Origin: a virus
Length of the DNA: 64,000 nucleotides
IMG/VR virus record: IMGVR_UViG_3300019889_000007
Coordinates: 1-64,000 of that record
Strand: one strand, 5' to 3'
Notes under the pieces: generated by a model
Seen by the model: only the letters and a program-made list of their open reading frames with translations
Database searches by the model: none
What the model was told of the DNA's origin: nothing
Shown here: one piece after another, positions 22,288 to 63,173 of the stretch
Numbering within the stretch: the stretch's first letter is position 1
Layout: every line of letters starts with the position of its first letter
Program-made: the position numbers and the translations under genes

Positions 22288-23058
22288 ATGATTTCGTACC
22301 GCACTGTCGATTTGGCGAGGCTGAACTCAGCCACCAAGTACCCGTCGATCGACACGTACCACCGGTTGGACCCCAAGACCGGAGACCTCACCGAGGCGCT
22401 GAACCACTCTTTCACCGGCGACGTGTACATGACCGAGAAGATCGACGGCACCAACGGCCGGATCGTGCTGTGCCCGGACGGGTGGATCATCGGATCGCGT
22501 AACGAACTGCTCACCGGTGAGGGCGACCTGATCGTCAACCCCAAGGAATCCATTGTGGAAACCTTGATGTATTCGGCTGAGCGGTTGAGCCATCGCAACG
22601 CCGATGAGAACGTGATCGTGGCGTACTTCGAGGTCTACGGATCTCAAGGACCCAAAGCGAAGCAGTACTCCCACAAGGGTAAAACCAACGGCTGCCGCCT
22701 GTTCGACATCGCGACCATCCCGACAGAGGTTCTCGACTGGGAACCGTCCAAGATTTCCGGTTGGCGTCAAAACAGCGGTCAGGATTTCGTGCCCGCGCAT
22801 CTACTGCCGTCGTGGGCCGACGCGATGGGTGCTGACCTGGTGCCGTGGGTCGGCGGCATCGACGGCAGCCAGTTGCCGACCGGTGTGGATGAGACCGAGG
22901 CTTGGATGCAGGATCTGGTGCCGTTGACTCAGGCCAACCTCGACCGGGCCACACCCGGAGCTGCTGAAGGTCTGGTGATCCGTTCGGAGAATCGTTCGGC
23001 GATCGCCAAGTTGCGGTTCGAGGATTACGGCCGCACCCGCGTCCGCTCCAGGAAGTGA
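22288..23058 (+). CDS. RNA ligase (nucleotidyltransferase superfamily)
   Basis: A 256-residue protein with the ligase motifs: motif I EKIDGTNGRI (catalytic K51), a following IIGSRNELL (motif Ia/III region), AYFEVYG with E115, motif IV EGLVIRSE (E227), and motif V AKLRF (K241). Lengths and motifs fit the Rnl2-like RNA ligase group, which seals 5'-phosphate/3'-hydroxyl RNA ends via an enzyme-AMP intermediate. Phage RNA ligases typically repair tRNAs cut by host defences. ATG 22288 follows AGGAAGGACACTC. It is a single gene between two terminators. Confidence 0.85.
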   Translation: MISYRTVDLARLNSATKYPSIDTYHRLDPKTGDLTEALNHSFTGDVYMTEKIDGTNGRIVLCPDGWIIGSRNELLTGEGDLIVNPKESIVETLMYSAERLSHRNADENVIVAYFEVYGSQGPKAKQYSHKGKTNGCRLFDIATIPTEVLDWEPSKISGWRQNSGQDFVPAHLLPSWADAMGADLVPWVGGIDGSQLPTGVDETEAWMQDLVPLTQANLDRATPGAAEGLVIRSENRSAIAKLRFEDYGRTRVRSRK

Positions 23059-40861: not shown

Positions 40862-41169
40862 CGGTCAACCAGCCGTGTGCGTGTGGTTGTCATCCGGTTC
40901 AGGTCCAGCGACGGCTGTTCCCGTCGTTCGCGAATTTTCCAGTCCTTCACGCGGCGACACAGCAATCGATGCTGGCGGCCAGGAAGGTGGCGATGGAAAC
41001 GTATGACCATCGGAACCTGGTGTTGGCGTATCGGTTCGCCTGCTATTCGTTGACCTACCTGCGGCAGCATGGTGAAGGCAGTGAGGCGGCTGTTAAGGAG
41101 TTGGTCTCGGTCAAGGAACGGCTGGCGACGTTGATTGTTCGCGACTATCTGGAATGGCTTTTCGCATGA
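40858..41169 (+). CDS. Hypothetical protein in the integrase operon
   Basis: A 103-residue protein, ATGA-coupled on both sides. The N-terminus holds CACGCH (residues 7-12), a possible metal site. The rest is helical (DHRNLVLAYRFACYSLTYL). It could assist integrase expression or directionality, but there is no direct evidence. Confidence 0.7.
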   Translation: MTVNQPCACGCHPVQVQRRLFPSFANFPVLHAATQQSMLAARKVAMETYDHRNLVLAYRFACYSLTYLRQHGEGSEAAVKELVSVKERLATLIVRDYLEWLFA

Positions 41170-42305
41170 CGACGGCAGAGGATGGTCTGCCCGAGTTGCC
41201 CGATCTTGACGTGGGTGGCGGTGAGGTTCTTTCGGGCGAGATCGTTGTCAGCTCGGTCGGGAAGGTGGTTGCTCGACGAAGGGTGTCGGATCGTCCTGAG
41301 CCGCCGAATGCGCTTAAGGCGTTGACGGCGGCGGGGTATGACCTTGTTGTGTCGGGGGTCTCGGCCAACACACTGCGGGCGTATGAGCGGTGTTGGGGTC
41401 AGTTCAATGAGTATCTGGATTCGCGGAAGCTGGGTCGGTTGGATATTGCGCCGACACCGGCGACGGTGATCATTGACTGGATGGCGTTGATGCTTCGTAC
41501 GCCGACCAAGCAAACGAAGATTCCGATGGCGCCATCGTCGGTGTCGCAGATGTTGGCTGCGATCCGGTACAAGCATCGTGAGATTCAAGGTTCGGATAAG
41601 ACGTGGACGGTGCCGCAGTCGTTGTTGCTGACTCAGGCGTATCGGGGGTATTGCCATCAGTGGCTCGATATGGGGCATCGGGTGCAACAGGCGGAACCGA
41701 CGTCGTGGGAGGATCTTGAGGTTTATGCGGCGGGGATTGATACGTCGTCCCCTCGGGGTAAGCGTGATCTTGCGTTGATCTTGTTGTCGTTTTGGATGGC
41801 GGCGCGCGCTTCCGACATCAGTGCTTTGTGGACTTCTCCGGGTGTGGACAACATCCGGTTGAATGCGACAACGATGCAGTTGTTCCTGCCGTATTCCAAG
41901 ACGGACCAGGCGGCTGCCGGGCAGTGGGTGACAATACCGAAGTTTGACAAGAATCCTCCATTGTGTCCTGTCAGATCGGTGCAGGCGTGGCGAGCGGAAC
42001 TGCTGCAAGTTCGGCCCGAGGCCGGTAAATTGTTCGTGGAGATGCCTGCCGGTTTGCGTTCGGACTTCTACGCTAAAGGATTTCCTGGCCTTCAGCCGAT
42101 GGCCGTCAGCGACGTGACGAAACGCTGGGCGAGACGGTTGGGGTTGGGTCAAAGATCGGCGCACTCTCACCGTCGAGGTGCTGCGACGCGGGCTCACGAA
42201 GCTGGGGCGGATATTCCGCAGATCAAAAAGCTCGGTCGTTGGAAATCTTCTGACACGGTCATGAAGTACATCGACGACCAGGCGTTTGAACACCCGTTGG
42301 CTTAG
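41166..42305 (+). CDS. int: Tyrosine recombinase (integrase)
   Basis: A 379-residue tyrosine recombinase. Catalytic residues: R214 in MAARASDISAL, K245 in YSKTDQAA, H333-x-x-R336 in SAHSHRRG, W359 in GRWKSSD, Y368 in MKYIDD. The N-terminal half carries a SAM-like core-binding domain (TLRAYERCWGQFNEYL). It catalyses site-specific integration through a 3'-phosphotyrosine intermediate. Start ATG 41166 overlaps the upstream stop (ATGA). The attP site was not found. The excisionase-like gene is 2 kb upstream. Confidence 0.95.
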   Translation: MTTAEDGLPELPDLDVGGGEVLSGEIVVSSVGKVVARRRVSDRPEPPNALKALTAAGYDLVVSGVSANTLRAYERCWGQFNEYLDSRKLGRLDIAPTPATVIIDWMALMLRTPTKQTKIPMAPSSVSQMLAAIRYKHREIQGSDKTWTVPQSLLLTQAYRGYCHQWLDMGHRVQQAEPTSWEDLEVYAAGIDTSSPRGKRDLALILLSFWMAARASDISALWTSPGVDNIRLNATTMQLFLPYSKTDQAAAGQWVTIPKFDKNPPLCPVRSVQAWRAELLQVRPEAGKLFVEMPAGLRSDFYAKGFPGLQPMAVSDVTKRWARRLGLGQRSAHSHRRGAATRAHEAGADIPQIKKLGRWKSSDTVMKYIDDQAFEHPLA

Positions 42306-46640: not shown

Positions 46641-46934
46641 TCATGGCCCAGCCTGACGCAGCATCTGGGCGTACGTGTACTGCCCGATGCTGGCGGTACC
46701 TGAGGGACTGACGATCGTGATCCGGTAGGTGCTGTTCTCCACGCTGCCAGTCGAGTAGATGTCTTTGCGGATTACCCACGGGGGCGTATCGAGGTGGCAC
46801 CCGCATTCCAGGACGTACCCGGTGATGACATCACCGGCCACCGTTTGCAGGCGCGTCGTGGTGGCCTGCGGAAACCAGTGCTGGTTCCCGCAGGCCACAC
46901 ACAACTGGCCACTGGAGCAGGTCAGAACGGCCAC
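46641..46934 (-). CDS. Small zinc-ribbon-like protein co-operonic with Ro60
   Basis: A 97-residue protein. Its GTG start (46934) overlaps the end of the Ro60-like gene by 13 bases, so both are on one mRNA. The N-terminus has CSSGQLCVACGNQH and a later CGCH, enough for a zinc site (residues 6-16 and about 44-47). The rest is beta-like. A small zinc protein tied to Ro60 could be an RNA-binding or adaptor partner. No homologue known to me. Confidence 0.7.
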   Translation of the reverse strand: MAVLTCSSGQLCVACGNQHWFPQATTTRLQTVAGDVITGYVLECGCHLDTPPWVIRKDIYSTGSVENSTYRITIVSPSGTASIGQYTYAQMLRQAGP

Positions 46935-48577
46935 ACGGCGTCCTTACCACTCTCCAGGGCCGGGATCATTCCGAAGGCCGCATCGGAAAGTCCACCGAAA
47001 ACGTACCGGTTGGGCGTATCGGGTAGATGCCCGAACTTGTATCCGCCCAAGTTCCACGTGTAAATCGGGATGTTCGCGGGCACGACGTCGTCGATCTTCT
47101 TCGGGACGTCCATGACGACCCGGCCCATGTGGTCGAAACGTCGCCGCGTCTCGGCCCAGTACCGGCTGGCCACACTCAACGCCTGAGTCCACCCCGGATT
47201 GGTCTGCTCATCGGTGATGATGACGACCCGGTCATGCTTGTCATAGGTCATGACCACCGCCAGCTGCGTATCGGTACCGCCCATGTTGCTGAACTTGCCC
47301 ATCGTGCGCAGCACCGAGTCGCCACGGGTGAACGGGATACGTTGATGGGCCGTGCCGTACTGGTACAGGTCAGCCGCCTCGGCACGCAACGCGATCACCG
47401 ACCCGAACAGGCTGGCTTTCTCGTTCAGACCGAGCTGCTTATGGTTGCCGCCGTAGCCGTACGGGAACATCGAGCTGGACTGGTCCACAAGCACCAGGGT
47501 CCGGCCATCGAAAGCTGGCACGCTCGACACTGACACCGCCAGGGCTTTCTCCAGGTACTCGCCCCATCGCAGCGACCCGACGTTCTTGTGCGCCGAGTAG
47601 AACCGGAACGGCAGCTGCCGGGACCGTTTGATCTGATCGGCGCTGGCCAGGCGGTCCTGCACCTGCCGGATCGCGGCATCGGGGAGTCCGGCCTTGTCGA
47701 AGTTCGCGAGGTTACGGATGAGCGCCATGATCCCCATCGACGGGATCGTGGCTTCCCACATTTTCTTTTGGCTCGCACCGATTTGCCCGGCCATGGAAAT
47801 GGAGTCTTCCCACGTCAATCCGGCGTCTGCCAGTTTCGTCGACAGGGTTTGCACGGTGACGTTGTCGATGCCTTCGGCCAGGATCGCTTTACGGACGGCC
47901 CGGTTGGTCCACACCTGCCCCAGGATGCCCAACGGCACGGGAGTGTCAGGGTTGGACCGGTGCTTGGCAATGTACCGGAACAGGGACGACTGCTCTGCTG
48001 AGGCGGGTTTTGGGTGGACCAACGCGATGACGTCGGCGAACCGGAACGTGTTGTTCCGGGAGTCCCACTTCAAGAAGTTGAACTGCGTGTACAAGCGCCG
48101 GACGGCATCGGCGATACCGCGTTTGATCGGCTGCGGGATCTTGCGGCCGTACTTCGTTGTCCAGTACGCCAGGGCTTCAGCGGGCTCGTCAGCGCGCACT
48201 ATCACCGAATCGATGAGCTTTCGGCCGCCCGGCAGGCCCGCGATCCGCATCGCGTCGGCCGCCTCCACCGCACCCACCAACGACGCCGAACGCATGTTGG
48301 CCTTATTGCGTAGCCACGGTAGGAACCGGGCGATCCACTCCGGGTCCACCACGGCCACGGCCTGAATCAGATGCCGGTACCGGTTGTCACGATGATCGGC
48401 CGCCTCATAGAACGCTTCGGTGGACACCATGTTCGACACGGCCAACAGAAACAGTTCAGATCGGGGGTCCCGCGAATAGGCGGGCGCGTTGTGGAAGTTA
48501 CGGCCGTCGGCGACCGCCGATCCCCTGATCGGTGACTTCTGCCGGACGGCAGCGCTGGCGGTGTTGAACTTACCCAT
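46922..48577 (-). CDS. rsr: Ro60/Rsr-like TROVE-domain protein
   Basis: A 551-residue protein of normal Ro60 size. Residues 1-340 are the TROVE helical-repeat ring (DPRSELFLLAVSNM, then WIARFLPWLRNKANMRSASL, and MGIMALIRNLANFDKAG), which binds misfolded RNA 3' ends and Y RNA. Residues 358-551 are a von Willebrand A domain with a complete MIDAS: D365-x-S-x-S in LVDQSSSMF, T435 in GGTDTQL and D456 in ITDEQTN. Bacterial homologues (Rsr) with Y RNA act in RNA degradation and quality control. ATG follows AAAGGACTCACG. Three Y-like RNAs lie upstream on the same strand. Confidence 0.95.
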   Translation of the reverse strand: MGKFNTASAAVRQKSPIRGSAVADGRNFHNAPAYSRDPRSELFLLAVSNMVSTEAFYEAADHRDNRYRHLIQAVAVVDPEWIARFLPWLRNKANMRSASLVGAVEAADAMRIAGLPGGRKLIDSVIVRADEPAEALAYWTTKYGRKIPQPIKRGIADAVRRLYTQFNFLKWDSRNNTFRFADVIALVHPKPASAEQSSLFRYIAKHRSNPDTPVPLGILGQVWTNRAVRKAILAEGIDNVTVQTLSTKLADAGLTWEDSISMAGQIGASQKKMWEATIPSMGIMALIRNLANFDKAGLPDAAIRQVQDRLASADQIKRSRQLPFRFYSAHKNVGSLRWGEYLEKALAVSVSSVPAFDGRTLVLVDQSSSMFPYGYGGNHKQLGLNEKASLFGSVIALRAEAADLYQYGTAHQRIPFTRGDSVLRTMGKFSNMGGTDTQLAVVMTYDKHDRVVIITDEQTNPGWTQALSVASRYWAETRRRFDHMGRVVMDVPKKIDDVVPANIPIYTWNLGGYKFGHLPDTPNRYVFGGLSDAAFGMIPALESGKDAVWPF

Positions 48578-48607
48578 CGTGAGTCCTTTGTGGCGTACAC
48601 GGGGAGG

Positions 48608-48779
48608 TGCGGCATGAGCCGTCAGGGATCTGAGAAAAAATTGACCGGAGACACGAACCGCTCTGCCGCTGAGCTAACTGACGCTTACACGAAAGTCTTG
48701 GATTCGAACCAAGGACCTGTCTCTTGAAAGGAGAAGTAGCTCCGGTCGTCGCACCAGTGCCCTGACGGCACAAGCCGCA
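48608..48779 (-). repeat. Inverted repeat flanking Y RNA 1
   Basis: On the transcribed (minus) strand, 20 bases upstream of Y RNA 1 (48760-48779, beginning TGCGGC) can pair with 20 bases after it (48608-48627, ending GCCGCA), 18 of 20 matched. The long stem encloses the RNA and ends 30 bases before the rsr start. It may be a processing site (RNase III-like) or a leader control element. Confidence 0.7.
48632..48747 (-). ncRNA. yrlA: YrlA-like Y RNA 1 (tRNA mimic)
   Basis: About 116 nt. GACCGGAG pairs exactly with CTCCGGTC, closing the molecule. Inside: conserved CTACTTC, T arm CTTGG-TTCGAAT-CCAAG (48697-48713), a weak acceptor-like hairpin (GAC/GTC), then a near-perfect D arm GCTC-AGCGGCA-GAGC (48660-48674). 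The tail AATTTTTTCTC resembles a terminator. The order T arm, closed acceptor, D arm, with a Y stem in place of the anticodon arm, is the known circularly permuted tRNA mimic of bacterial YrlA RNAs. Confidence 0.85.
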
Positions 48780-48785
48780 CATCCC

Positions 48786-48917
48786 GAGAAAAAAGTTGCC
48801 GGAGAACACGGTGGCTTTGGCCGCTCGCCCACACCGGCCTGTTACGGACCGGCGGCAGGATTCGAACCTACGAGACCTTTAGGGTCACCCATTTGTCAAG
48901 AATGAAGTAACTCCAGC
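48786..48917 (-). ncRNA. yrlA: YrlA-like Y RNA 2 (tRNA mimic)
   Basis: About 132 nt. GCTGGAG pairs with CTCCGGC. T arm GTAGG-TTCGAAT-CCTGC (48855-48871), an 8-bp closed acceptor-like stem (CGCCGGTC/GGCCGGTG), then a D-like arm with loop GAGCGGCCAAA holding the GG pair. The closing strand repeats the GGAGTTACTTC motif of the other copies and ends in AACTTTTTTCTC. Confidence 0.82.
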
Positions 48918-49006
48918 TATCGCACCGGGATGTGCAACACCGAACACCATACCCACACGGTTACGTCTACGCCACGCATTTGCGTGAAGTGGATGTCGCG
49001 CCCACC

Positions 49007-49130
49007 GAGAAAAGAGAATCGACCGGAGTTGAGAAACTTGCTAGCGGCCTGCCAATTAACCGACAGTAGACTCGCGAAGGGTCTACCGGCAGGACTCGAA
49101 CCTGCACAACCAACGGAAGTAACCCCAGCC
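49007..49130 (-). ncRNA. yrlA: YrlA-like Y RNA 3 (tRNA mimic)
   Basis: About 124 nt. A 10-bp closing stem GGCTGGGGTT/AACTCCGGTC, then GGGTTACTTC, T arm GCAGG-TTCGAGT-CCTGC (49089-49105), acceptor-like hairpin GTAGAC-CCTTCGCGA-GTCTAC (49066-49086), and a D arm with loop TTAATTGGCAGG (GG present). It is first in the array, directly downstream of the promoter. Confidence 0.84.
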
Positions 49131-49157
49131 TTCACACCGGCGAACACGACAACACTC

Positions 49158-49186
49158 ATAGTAGCCATGTCGTGTCTGCCTGTCAG
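49158..49186 (-). promoter_or_regulatory. Promoter for the Y RNA array
   Basis: On the minus strand CTGACA (-35, plus 49181-49186) and TACTAT (-10, plus 49158-49163) are separated by exactly 17 bases, giving a start near 49151, 21 bases upstream of Y RNA 3. This is a good vegetative-type promoter for the array. Confidence 0.75.
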
Positions 49187-53465: not shown

Positions 53466-53648
53466 CTAGCAGCCCAGCTCGGTACGAGCAGCCTGCTTCA
53501 GGGCCTCGAAATCGCCAGCGGTCAAGGTCATGACCTGCGAAGTGTGCTTGCTGTCCCGCACGCGCGGAACACCATCGAGAAACCCGATCTCGACACAGTT
53601 GTTTGAAGGCTGGCTGCTCCGGCTTGCTTTCTTCCATTCAGTGTTCAT
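53466..53648 (-). CDS. DUF397 protein (BldB-like), paired with XRE
   Basis: A 60-residue DUF397 protein (WKKASRSSQPSNNCVEIGF, then VRDSKHTSQV). Its ATG lies inside the last codons of the XRE/DUF5753 gene. XRE/DUF397 pairs (WhiJ/AbaA-BldB type) are a hallmark of actinomycete genomes and act as developmental regulators. A second, orphan DUF397 gene is at 23104. Confidence 0.9.
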   Translation of the reverse strand: MNTEWKKASRSSQPSNNCVEIGFLDGVPRVRDSKHTSQVMTLTAGDFEALKQAARTELGC

Positions 53649-54510
53649 TCAGATACTCCTTGAGTGTTATGCAGTGTTCAGCAGTTCCATCGAACATTCG
53701 TTGGAATTGATCTGCTGCGATCGGATGAAGGCTGGCGTCAATATATCGAGCCGACCTGCCACCTTCTTCGTACACTGTCGTCGGATCATCGGGGTTGTCA
53801 AACTCCAAGATAATGAACCGGCGTTGAATGCATGGATGCGCCCCGAGCCACGGGGGGATCACCGATATTGTGACATTTGGGTGCTCAGATTTTTCGATCA
53901 AGTGGTCGATCTGTTCCTTCATGACCTCTGGTCCACCGACCAGGTTCTCCACAGACGCGAAACTCATCAAGTAGTTGATGACCAGGCCATCATCGACCCG
54001 TTTCATTATCTTCTGAGTGCGTCCCATCCGAGATTCCACGAACGTCGTGATGTCGGGCCTTGGGAGGTTGTTGGCCAACATCGTGTTTCGGACGCTACGA
54101 AACACCGCCTCTGTGTAGGATTTTGTTTGAAAGTATCCTGAAATGAGGGATTCCGAGTGCTCATGCATCGTTGATGCAATCTGTTCAAGTTCCAAAAGCG
54201 TGAACATCCCCTGTGTGAACGCCCCGTCGATGAGCCGTTCATACGATGGTTTGATACCCGTCTGGACCGCCTGATTCTTCAGTTCGTCGCGTAGTGTGCC
54301 CGAGCCGATTCCGTAGAGATCCAACAGTGCCGAGACAGTGCCGACTTTGACTTTGGCTTTGCCGATACCGTTTTCGATGGTGTTCAGCGTGGATGTGCAG
54401 CACACTCCGGACTCTGCGACATCTTCTTGTGTTTTGCCAGCTTCTTTGCGCAATCGCTGCAACGTGCGTCCGAGCTGGCGCTTATGCATTCGTGGTTGTG
54501 GCGCGGTCAT
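53638..54510 (-). CDS. XRE/DUF5753 (WhiJ-like) regulator
   Basis: A 290-residue regulator. HTH in residues 12-65 (RTLQRLRKEAGKTQEDVAE, SGVCCTSTLNTIENG). The remaining 200 residues match DUF5753 (ERLIDGAFTQGMFTLLELEQ, VESRMGRTQKIMKR, VTISVIPPWLGAHPCIQRRF, YEEGGRSARYID). Such regulators pair with DUF397 proteins to control differentiation in Streptomyces-like hosts. Start ATG after GGAGGT. Operator-like repeats lie upstream. Confidence 0.92.
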   Translation of the reverse strand: MTAPQPRMHKRQLGRTLQRLRKEAGKTQEDVAESGVCCTSTLNTIENGIGKAKVKVGTVSALLDLYGIGSGTLRDELKNQAVQTGIKPSYERLIDGAFTQGMFTLLELEQIASTMHEHSESLISGYFQTKSYTEAVFRSVRNTMLANNLPRPDITTFVESRMGRTQKIMKRVDDGLVINYLMSFASVENLVGGPEVMKEQIDHLIEKSEHPNVTISVIPPWLGAHPCIQRRFIILEFDNPDDPTTVYEEGGRSARYIDASLHPIAADQFQRMFDGTAEHCITLKEYLNEH

Positions 54511-61982: not shown

Positions 61983-63173
61983 TCACGCTCCTGTCACATC
62001 CGACAGCGTCGACAAACCGACACTGACCGTCTCGGTTCCCCGCGACTGCCACTCCACTTCCAACGTCACCAACCGCATGCCCTGCCTGATCGGGACACAC
62101 AAACCTTCGATGATGTAAACGTCCAACCGGATACCCGGAATCAGGTCCTCCATCGACAACGGCGCCGACGCGGTCAACGTCGCCTGCGACGGCATCCGCA
62201 CAATCGTCGGTGGCGGGTTGCGGTTCCACACCGCGTTCTTGGCCGCGCGCCGCACATCGGCGGCATCAGCGTTGGAATCCTCCATATGCCGCAGCACGTC
62301 AATCCGGCCGTACCGGTAGATCTTCAGCTGAGAATCGGGTTCCTCATCCGGTGACGGCAGGAACGTCTCAGTGATCCCCGGCCAATCCTCATCACCTTCG
62401 GAGTCACCCTCGCGCTGGGTGGTGGCCCAGCCGCGCACACCGGCTTCCAGACCGTTGACCACGACATCGACATCACCGTCGAAGTGTTCGGTCGTCAACC
62501 GGGCCTGTGTCTGGTCCCTGGTGGTGACACGGCGCTGCAACCGCAACGACCGGTTGATGACGGTGAAGTCCAGGGCGTAGGACTGCGCCATCTGTCTCAA
62601 AATCGACCCGAGAGTGTCGACCACGGTGCCGCGCCGGTACCGGGTGATCTCTTCTGACGGGACAACGACGATTTGGTCCATGATCAGGCTGGAGTCGACC
62701 GGGTCGTCGAACGCCGGGTCGAGCAGGTTGATGCTGATCATGTCGTAGGCGATCTCGGTGATCGCGGTGGGAACGTCGAACCACAGGCGGTGAGCATTGA
62801 CGCATTCGTCGAGGCGCTGCACGATGTCGCGGCACACCAGGGTTTTGATCGGGGAGCCGAACGTTTCGATGCGTTGCATCACTTCGCCCTCCCAGACTTG
62901 AATGTTGTCGCGGAAGATCCGGATCTGCGCGACCCGCACCTCGATTTTGTTCCACAGTCGACAGCATTCGGGTGAGGCGTTGACGAAGTCGATTTCGATT
63001 TCGGCTTCGGAGAAGTCCCGCAGGACACGACCCCACCGAAGCCGGTTGACGCCGTCGATGGCTCCGATGTAGAACATTTGTGCGCGGGGGGCCGGGGTGT
63101 CGTCGCCGACAACGCGTTTCATGGCGTGGACTTCGACGGTGTACTGCTCGGCGCATCCCAGAAGCGACGGCAT
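61983..63173 (-). CDS. Minor tail protein (siphovirus Gp37-like)
   Basis: A 396-residue protein. Beta-rich start, then IEVRVAQIRIFRDNIQVWEG (residues 76-95) and SMEDLIPGIRLDVYIIEG near the end resemble the actinophage ReqiPepy6 Gp37-like tail family. Late part has NPPPTIVRMPSQATL. It probably forms part of the tail tip or hub, where it contacts neighbouring baseplate proteins. It overlaps the next gene's stop by one base. Confidence 0.65.
   Translation of the reverse strand: MPSLLGCAEQYTVEVHAMKRVVGDDTPAPRAQMFYIGAIDGVNRLRWGRVLRDFSEAEIEIDFVNASPECCRLWNKIEVRVAQIRIFRDNIQVWEGEVMQRIETFGSPIKTLVCRDIVQRLDECVNAHRLWFDVPTAITEIAYDMISINLLDPAFDDPVDSSLIMDQIVVVPSEEITRYRRGTVVDTLGSILRQMAQSYALDFTVINRSLRLQRRVTTRDQTQARLTTEHFDGDVDVVVNGLEAGVRGWATTQREGDSEGDEDWPGITETFLPSPDEEPDSQLKIYRYGRIDVLRHMEDSNADAADVRRAAKNAVWNRNPPPTIVRMPSQATLTASAPLSMEDLIPGIRLDVYIIEGLCVPIRQGMRLVTLEVEWQSRGTETVSVGLSTLSDVTGA

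What the first reader, a model, noticed from the sequence alone, without database searches (positions are those of the whole stretch)
48632..49130. Three Y RNAs have the same architecture but different closed acceptor and D arms
T loops are all TTCRANY. The closed acceptor-like stems differ: 48632-48747 weak GAC/GTC, 48786-48917 an 8-bp stem, 49007-49130 a 6-bp GTAGAC/GTCTAC. D arms vary between a near-perfect GCTC/GAGC and more divergent forms. All keep GGRGYTACTTC near the 5' stem and a TTCTCC-like 3' strand. This suggests an array that duplicated and specialised, possibly with different modification enzymes or nucleases.
Basis: partly seen in the sequence, partly recalled or inferred. Interest (0 to 1): 0.7.

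Follow-up and report, generated by a model that had tools for sequence, protein, structure and literature searches.

The report
Phage Ro60 with three tRNA-mimicking RNAs
A bacterial virus carries a gene for the RNA-holding protein Ro60 and, just before it, three small RNAs that share one Ro60 'handle' but each end in a different imitation of a transfer RNA; two appear to include an imitation anticodon loop, which the accounts I could read do not mention.

Summary
Three YrlA-type Y RNAs lie on the minus strand directly upstream of a phage ro60 gene (TROVE, 551 aa). A covariance model built only from 59 relatives finds exactly these three in the 88.8-kb record (E 1e-22, 3e-15, 2e-13). In relatives 22 of 25 pairs covary. 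The T loops, differing closed acceptor stems and D arms are as described, with small register corrections. 'Duplicated and specialised' gains support: within arrays the Ro60-binding handle is unusually alike while the tRNA-like parts differ as much as between unrelated loci. In 47 of 79 non-redundant units (window RNA1 and RNA2 counted among the 79) a 3-5 bp hairpin with a CUNNNAA-type 7-nt loop sits at exact tRNA spacing (shuffles: mean 1.4, max 5), and it covaries. RNA1 has it (loop CUUUCAA); RNA2 has it plus a class II-type variable arm; RNA3 is the published form without it. These are complete, circularly permuted tRNA mimics. What each RNA binds, and whether Ro60 binds them here, is inferred. 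Verdict: new variant of a known kind.

The parts
46922..48577 (-). ro60 / TROVE-domain protein (551 aa), downstream partner gene; MIDAS-type motif DQSSS (365-369), T435, D456
   Evidence: Pfam PF05731 57 bits, cut-off 23; PHROG 850 RNA-binding protein E 3e-42; 38-42% identical over full length to Ro-like proteins of Streptomyces, Arthrobacter and Gordonia phages; profile matches solved D. radiodurans Rsr 2nvo and animal Ro60; conserved columns
49158..49186 (-). sigma-70-like promoter CTGACA-N17-TACTAT, only one in the region, ends about 15 nt before RNA3
   Evidence: consensus scan, 9/12; 0.2 expected in shuffles; consensus match only
49007..49143 (-). RNA3: Y RNA with classical YrlA layout (5-bp anticodon-type stem joining the Ro60 stem, no anticodon loop)
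   Evidence: CM from relatives 63.1 bits E 3e-15; Rfam YrlA 18.1 bits, below gathering 69
49021..49130 (-). RNA3 Ro60-binding stem GGCTGGGGTT (49121-49130) / AACTCCGGTC (49021-49030)
   Evidence: covarying helix 1 in relatives; coordinates
49040..49114 (-). RNA3 anticodon-type stem GTTGG (49110-49114) / CTAGC (49040-49044)
   Evidence: sequence; same kind of 5-bp stem in 19 relatives lacking the hairpin
49089..49105 (-). RNA3 T arm GCAGG TTCGAGT CCTGC
49064..49088 (-). RNA3 closed acceptor stem CGGTAGAC / GTCTACTG, 9-nt loop
49046..49061 (-). RNA3 D arm GGTT AATTGGCA GGCC
48783..48931 (-). RNA2: Y RNA with class II-type tRNA mimic (anticodon loop and long variable arm)
   Evidence: CM 56.8 bits E 1.6e-13; ARAGORN calls part of it tRNA-Ser(tga)
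48889..48905 (-). RNA2 anticodon stem-loop TCATT [CTTGACA] AATGG, triplet TGA
   Evidence: reordered sequence folds as tRNA-Ser(tga); 87 of 20000 shuffled linkers give hairpin plus variable arm
48872..48888 (-). RNA2 long variable arm GT GACC[CTAAA]GGTC TC
48855..48871 (-). RNA2 T arm GTAGG TTCGAAT CCTGC
48832..48854 (-). RNA2 closed acceptor stem, 8 bp CGCCGGTC / GGCCGGTG
48813..48829 (-). RNA2 D arm GGC GAGCGGCCAAA GCC (3-bp stem, class II-like)
48798..48917 (-). RNA2 Ro60-binding stem GCTGGAG (48911-48917) / CTCCGGC (48798-48804)
48777..48935 (-). RNA2 outer stem arms 48777-48786 and 48926-48935, 10 bp perfect
48629..48760 (-). RNA1: Y RNA with class I-type tRNA mimic including anticodon loop
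   Evidence: CM 91.1 bits E 1e-22; Rfam YrlA 24.2 bits E 0.011, below gathering 69
48719..48735 (-). RNA1 anticodon stem-loop TTCTC [CTTTCAA] GAGAC, triplet TTC, followed by 5-nt variable loop AGGTC (48714-48718)
48697..48713 (-). RNA1 T arm CTTGG TTCGAAT CCAAG
48677..48696 (-). RNA1 closed acceptor ACT..CGT GUAA GCG..AGT (3+3 bp)
48660..48674 (-). RNA1 D arm GCTC AGCGGCA GAGC
48643..48747 (-). RNA1 Ro60-binding stem GACCGGAG (48740-48747) / CTCCGGTC (48643-48650)
48602..48785 (-). RNA1 extended outer stem: 31-nt arms 48602-48632 and 48755-48785, 84% complementary; 5' arm overlaps RNA2's outer stem, 3' arm lies in the ro60 leader

Best explanation
A phage Ro60 operon: one promoter appears to drive RNA3-RNA2-RNA1-ro60 (inferred from layout). 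Each RNA is a Y RNA of the bacterial YrlA kind: an outer stem, an internal loop with conserved strands GGTGYG and TTTTCTC, a stem ending in ..UACUUC that is taken to bind Ro60, and an effector domain that is a circularly permuted tRNA with a closed acceptor stem (anatomy shown). RNA1 and RNA2 belong to a subtype, common in actinobacterial and actinophage loci, that also carries an anticodon stem-loop; RNA2 adds a class II-type variable arm; RNA3 is the published form without that loop (shown as sequence and covariation, not probed). Likely working: each Y RNA ties Ro60 to a host protein that recognises tRNA shape (PNPase in the known RYPER complex), so one Ro60 is offered several effector ends for degrading, sorting or protecting RNA in the infected cell. 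The T- and D-loops suggest TruB and Dus-type modification (inferred from Salmonella YrlA). That the three ends have different partners is inferred.
For: Adjacent full-length ro60. Independent CM hits all three and nothing else in the record. Covariation: 94.5% of cells paired vs 68% shuffled, 40-53% when slid. Same RNAs lie mostly within about 750 nt upstream of ro60 in relatives and near ro60 in named phages. Anticodon stem-loop: 47/79 vs mean 1.4; in 36 relatives chosen only for linker length 19, covariation score 0.427 vs 0.151 shuffled and 0.07-0.13 slid; where only U33 and the stem were required, C32 39/45, purine 37 41/45, A38 43/45. Constant handle, free effector part. YrlA tethering to PNPase and DusA/TruB modification: PMC8394870; RYPER: PMC4726728.
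Against: Scores are far below Rfam's gathering score for YrlA (24.2 and 18.1 vs 69; RNA2 not matched), though the relatives in named phages also miss it. Minimum-energy folds prefer other pairings, especially for RNA2 (-50.0 vs -35.1 for the proposed fold without outer stem), and folding is no better than shuffles. RNA2's loop has C at position 37, where tRNAs have a purine. The triplet does not predict the isotype of the rest of the body (mean rank 9 of 21). No expression, binding or probing data; the host is unknown.
Confidence: 0.72

Rival explanations
1. Neutral redundancy: the three Y RNAs do the same job (dosage), and the effector parts drift because only the general tRNA shape matters.
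For: Effector parts are no more alike within a locus than between loci, as drift would also give; triplets vary freely and do not track isotype.
Against: Stems are kept by compensatory change and C32, U33, R37, A38 are kept while 34-36 vary; the layouts of RNA1-3 differ in kind, not only in sequence.
Confidence: 0.3
2. tRNA decoys: the anticodon-loop forms bind or are cut by host tRNA-cleaving (anticodon) nucleases or toxins, sparing tRNAs during infection; Ro60 stabilises or recycles them.
For: Complete anticodon loops with varied triplets; authors of PMC7790460 propose that YrlA could inhibit an anticodon nuclease; the phage encodes an RNA ligase (22288-23058, PF09414 E 1e-13), and phage Kela has one next to ro60.
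Against: Salmonella YrlA is not cut by the nuclease tested; the same subtype occurs in bacterial genome contigs, so it is not phage-specific; no RtcB or AAA_33 kinase family found in the record.
Confidence: 0.2
3. They are tRNA genes or decayed tRNAs of the phage.
For: ARAGORN calls 48846-48929 tRNA-Ser(tga); when reordered, RNA1 and RNA2 give tRNA-Glu(ttc) and tRNA-Ser(tga) cloverleaves.
Against: Natural order is permuted with a closed acceptor stem; Rfam's tRNA model finds only the Trp and Cys genes; the CM for permuted units hits all three full length.
Confidence: 0.03
4. The structures mainly serve in cis, as leader elements or processing signals of the ro60 mRNA.
For: RNA1's 31-nt outer inverted repeat ends inside the ro60 leader; no convincing terminator between the units.
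Against: In some relatives units lie over 1 kb from ro60 or downstream of it, and tRNA-like detail is not needed for that.
Confidence: 0.08

Closest known systems
YrlA (Y RNA-like A), Rfam RF02553; Salmonella YrlA, structure 6CU1
   Same: Next to ro60; basal Ro60-type stem; T, D and closed acceptor arms in circularly permuted tRNA order.
   Different: Below Rfam's gathering score; RNA1 and RNA2 carry an anticodon stem-loop, which in RNA1 falls in a 15-nt insertion relative to the Rfam model; RNA2 has a long variable arm. The readable review lists only D, T and acceptor arms.
RYPER (Rsr / Y RNA / PNPase), Deinococcus radiodurans
   Same: Same two genetic components, Ro60 orthologue and Y RNA.
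   Different: PNPase binding not tested; phage-borne; three Y RNAs, all with tRNA-like ends.
Ro60/Y RNA loci of Streptomyces, Gordonia and Arthrobacter phages
   Same: ro60 with 2-5 Y RNAs nearby, full (about 120-150 nt) and short (about 65-90 nt) forms.
   Different: The window has three full forms and no short one; no DNA-level match in the phage collection.
rsr-yrlBA-rtcBA RNA repair operon, Salmonella
   Same: Ro60, Y RNAs and an RNA ligase in one genome.
   Different: Ligase is of a different family (PF09414) and 24 kb away; no RtcB found.

Membership tests
Bacterial Y RNA, YrlA kind | Encoded next to a Ro60/Rsr gene | tested here: met
   ro60 48577-46922, same strand, about 50 nt downstream of RNA1
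Bacterial Y RNA, YrlA kind | Conserved basal stem with adjacent CUAC/UACUUC strand and outer stem | tested here: met
Bacterial Y RNA, YrlA kind | Effector domain with T arm, closed acceptor stem and D arm in permuted order | tested here: met
Bacterial Y RNA, YrlA kind | Anticodon-type stem continuous with the Ro60 stem (no anticodon loop) | tested here: inconclusive
   met in RNA3 (5 bp); in RNA1 and RNA2 only 2-3 outer pairs plus a hairpin
Rfam RF02553 YrlA as modelled | Score at or above the gathering score of 69 bits | tested here: not met
   24.2, 18.1 bits and no match; named phage relatives 25-47 bits
Bacterial Y RNA, YrlA kind | Bound by Ro60 | not testable with these tools
   needs a binding assay
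Bacterial Y RNA, YrlA kind | Pseudouridine and dihydrouridine by TruB and DusA | not testable with these tools
   T and D loops kept; modification needs chemistry
TROVE/Ro60 protein | TROVE profile over cut-off and MIDAS residues | tested here: met
   57 bits vs 23; D365-S367-S369, T435, D456 conserved
tRNA | Order acceptor-D-anticodon-variable-T-acceptor with open 3' end | tested here: not met
   order permuted, acceptor closed; RF00005 finds only the Trp and Cys genes
Class II tRNA mimic (RNA2) | Long variable arm, 3-bp D stem, 7-nt anticodon loop at tRNA spacing | tested here: met
   0.4% of shuffled linkers give both hairpins; but position 37 is C

The most novel reading that the evidence does not exclude
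A widespread actinobacterial and actinophage subtype of Y RNA is a whole, circularly permuted tRNA with a genuine anticodon loop, presented on Ro60; arrays offer several tRNA identities (here a class I form with UUC, a class II Ser-like form with UGA, and a form without anticodon loop) to different tRNA-handling enzymes, for instance as decoys for anticodon nucleases.
Probability: 0.25. Interest if true: 0.78.

Novelty: new variant of a known kind. Interest (0 to 1): 0.6.

Why it matters
Y RNAs are thought of as handles that tie Ro60 to an effector, and the bacterial kind as mimics of the D, T and acceptor arms only. If many of them also carry an anticodon loop, the list of possible partners widens to everything that reads anticodon loops (modification enzymes, anticodon nucleases, synthetases), and the open question of what YrlA is for becomes directly testable. 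It also shows that tRNA counts in some deposited phage genomes include Y RNAs.

Tried and rejected
Direct search with the single Ro60 protein in viral and genome contigs gave nothing; an alignment worked. Megablast of 20 kb against phages: no match. Single-sequence folding gave no significant stability and alternative folds, so it was not used as evidence. A loose stem finder for all Y RNAs was noisy, and its stricter form still gives 55 antisense hits against 335 sense, so array counts rest on the CM and the strict descriptor. Test whether the anticodon triplet matches the isotype of the body: not so in general, so 'captured tRNA of that isotype' was dropped; RNA2's best body matches are class II (Leu, then Ser). 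The first script of that test failed on a setting. The primary papers (Chen 2014, Wang 2018, Sim 2018/2020) are not held, so prior notice of the anticodon loop cannot be excluded.

Full report
WHAT IS THERE. The window is part of an 88,762-bp IMG/VR virus record. On the minus strand 48577-46922 encodes a 551-aa TROVE/Ro60 protein, 38-42% identical over its full length to proteins annotated 'Ro-like RNA binding protein' or 'RNA-binding protein' in Streptomyces, Arthrobacter and Gordonia phages. Immediately upstream on the same strand lie three RNAs, in transcription order RNA3 (49143-49007), RNA2 (48931-48783) and RNA1 (48760-48629). A single promoter-like site, CTGACA-17-TACTAT, ends about 15 nt before RNA3, and no convincing terminator separates the units, so a common transcript is likely but not shown.

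IS IT REAL. Rfam's YrlA model finds RNA1 and RNA3 weakly (24.2 and 18.1 bits, gathering 69) and not RNA2. I therefore collected 172 ro60 loci from phages, plasmids, viral contigs and bacterial genomes, parsed them with a fixed descriptor, aligned 59 units without the window, and built a covariance model. It finds the three window RNAs at E 1e-22, 3e-15 and 2e-13; the next match that is not part of a true tRNA has E above 1, and the whole record has no fourth copy. In the relatives 22 of 25 pairs show changes on both sides, with 94.5% of cells paired against 68% for shuffles and 40-53% for slid versions.

ANATOMY. From outside in: outer stem (31-nt inverted repeat around RNA1, 10-bp around RNA2); internal loop with GGTGYG on the 5' side and TTTTCTC on the 3' side; the 7-10 bp stem running into UACUUC (the putative Ro60 handle); then a permuted tRNA: T arm, closed acceptor stem, two-base linker, D arm. 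The closed acceptors are 3+3 bp on a GUAA loop (RNA1), 8 bp (RNA2) and 8 bp (RNA3); D arms are GCTC/GAGC, GGC/GCC and GGTT/GGCC.

Between UACUUC and the T arm many relatives have a hairpin with a 7-nt loop at exactly the distance that a tRNA variable loop of 4-5 nt would give. Of 79 non-redundant units with a long enough linker (window RNA1 and RNA2 among them) 47 have it at that spacing; shuffled linkers give 1.4 on average, 5 at most. Requiring only U33 and a stem of 4 bp or more, the loop reads C32 (39/45), purine 37 (41/45), A38 (43/45), as in tRNAs. In 36 relatives picked only by linker length, not by pairing, the hairpin covaries (score 0.427; 0.151 shuffled; 0.07-0.13 slid). Units tend to have either this hairpin (45 of 97) or, without it, a full 5-bp anticodon-type stem joining the Ro60 stem, the published layout (19 of 97); the rest are intermediate. 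RNA1 is of the first type (loop CUUUCAA, variable loop AGGUC), RNA3 of the second. RNA2 has the hairpin (CUUGACA) and then a 17-nt variable arm GACC[CUAAA]GGUC with a 3-bp D stem, as in class II tRNAs; 87 of 20,000 shuffled linkers do as well. Put back into tRNA order, RNA1 and RNA2 fold as tRNA-Glu(ttc) and tRNA-Ser(tga) in ARAGORN, while RNA3 forms no proper anticodon arm. The triplet does not predict the isotype of the rest, so I do not claim that each RNA copies one particular tRNA. In the hairpin type, 2-3 outer pairs with the strand after the D arm seem to remain (27/45 with three or more, against 17.7 and at most 23 with swapped partners).

DUPLICATION AND SPECIALISATION. In 125 CM-aligned units the handle is more alike within a locus than between loci (0.664 vs 0.575, 0/300 permutations), the tRNA-like part is not (0.577 vs 0.595). 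This is what an array with one constant adaptor and free effector ends would look like, although drift of the effector ends explains the second half too. Many relatives combine full and short (about 65-90 nt, no tRNA-like part) units; the window has three full ones.

HOW IT PROBABLY WORKS. Shown here: gene order, covarying anatomy, subtypes. From the literature: bacterial Y RNA links Rsr to PNPase, and YrlA is modified by DusA and TruB (PMC8394870; PMC4726728); the tRNA-like part has been proposed as a competitive inhibitor of an anticodon nuclease, though it is not cut by it in Salmonella (PMC7790460). Inferred: the phage Ro60 binds the three handles and offers three tRNA-like ends to host tRNA-binding proteins. 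An RNA ligase gene elsewhere in the record and one beside ro60 in phage Kela fit an RNA-repair setting, as suggested for TROVE proteins of jumbo phages (PMC7824862), but do not prove it.

KNOWN OR NEW. Y RNAs with a tRNA-like domain and their circular permutation relative to tRNA are known; their occurrence near ro60 in more than 250 bacterial and phage species, with more than one Y RNA per species, I recall from Chen et al. 2014, which was not readable here. The anticodon stem-loop subtype and the class II-type RNA2 are not described in the papers I could read, and in RNA1 the loop is an insertion relative to Rfam's model. I therefore rate it a new variant of a known kind, with the caveat that the primary papers were not available.

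Noticed in passing
L002:2269-2343, L005:2274-2347, L008:2204-2275, L009:2245-2335; window 48846-48929: In four deposited phage genomes (GiJojo gp29 tRNA-Arg, Alone3 gp36 tRNA-Ser, VanLee gp125 tRNA-Arg, Frankenweenie gp148 tRNA-Pro) an annotated tRNA gene overlaps a Y RNA; ARAGORN of the parsed Y RNAs in relatives tRNAs.
   Followed up: yes
window 22288-23058 +: 256-aa protein with RNA ligase domain (PF09414, E 1e-13) and a KIDG motif; phage Kela has an RNA ligase gene directly upstream of ro60.
   Followed up: partly
window 48777-48786 and 48602-48632: The 3' arm of RNA2's outer stem overlaps the 5' arm of RNA1's extended outer stem, so the two stems compete on one transcript.
   Followed up: no
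L045:2746-2810, L010:2023-2092, L004:2190-2265 and many others: Short Y RNAs (about 65-80 nt) consisting of little more than the Ro60 stem sit beside full ones in many relatives.
   Followed up: partly
L002:1818-1900: Shrunken tRNA-like Y RNA in phage GiJojo: T arm AGAGG-TTCAACC-CCTTT, closed acceptor AATCCCC/GGGGATT and D-like arm GCC/GGC directly on the Ro60 stem.
   Followed up: no
L004:4579-4742, L005:4467-4699: manA RNA-like matches (49.7 and 47.8 bits, below the gathering score 55.2) between tRNA genes in phages BRock and Alone3.
   Followed up: no
window 41154-42305 +, 61983-63173 -, 53638-54510 -: Integrase (PF00589), minor tail protein and DUF5753 HTH protein: the virus is a tailed, probably temperate phage, likely of an actinobacterium.
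   Followed up: partly
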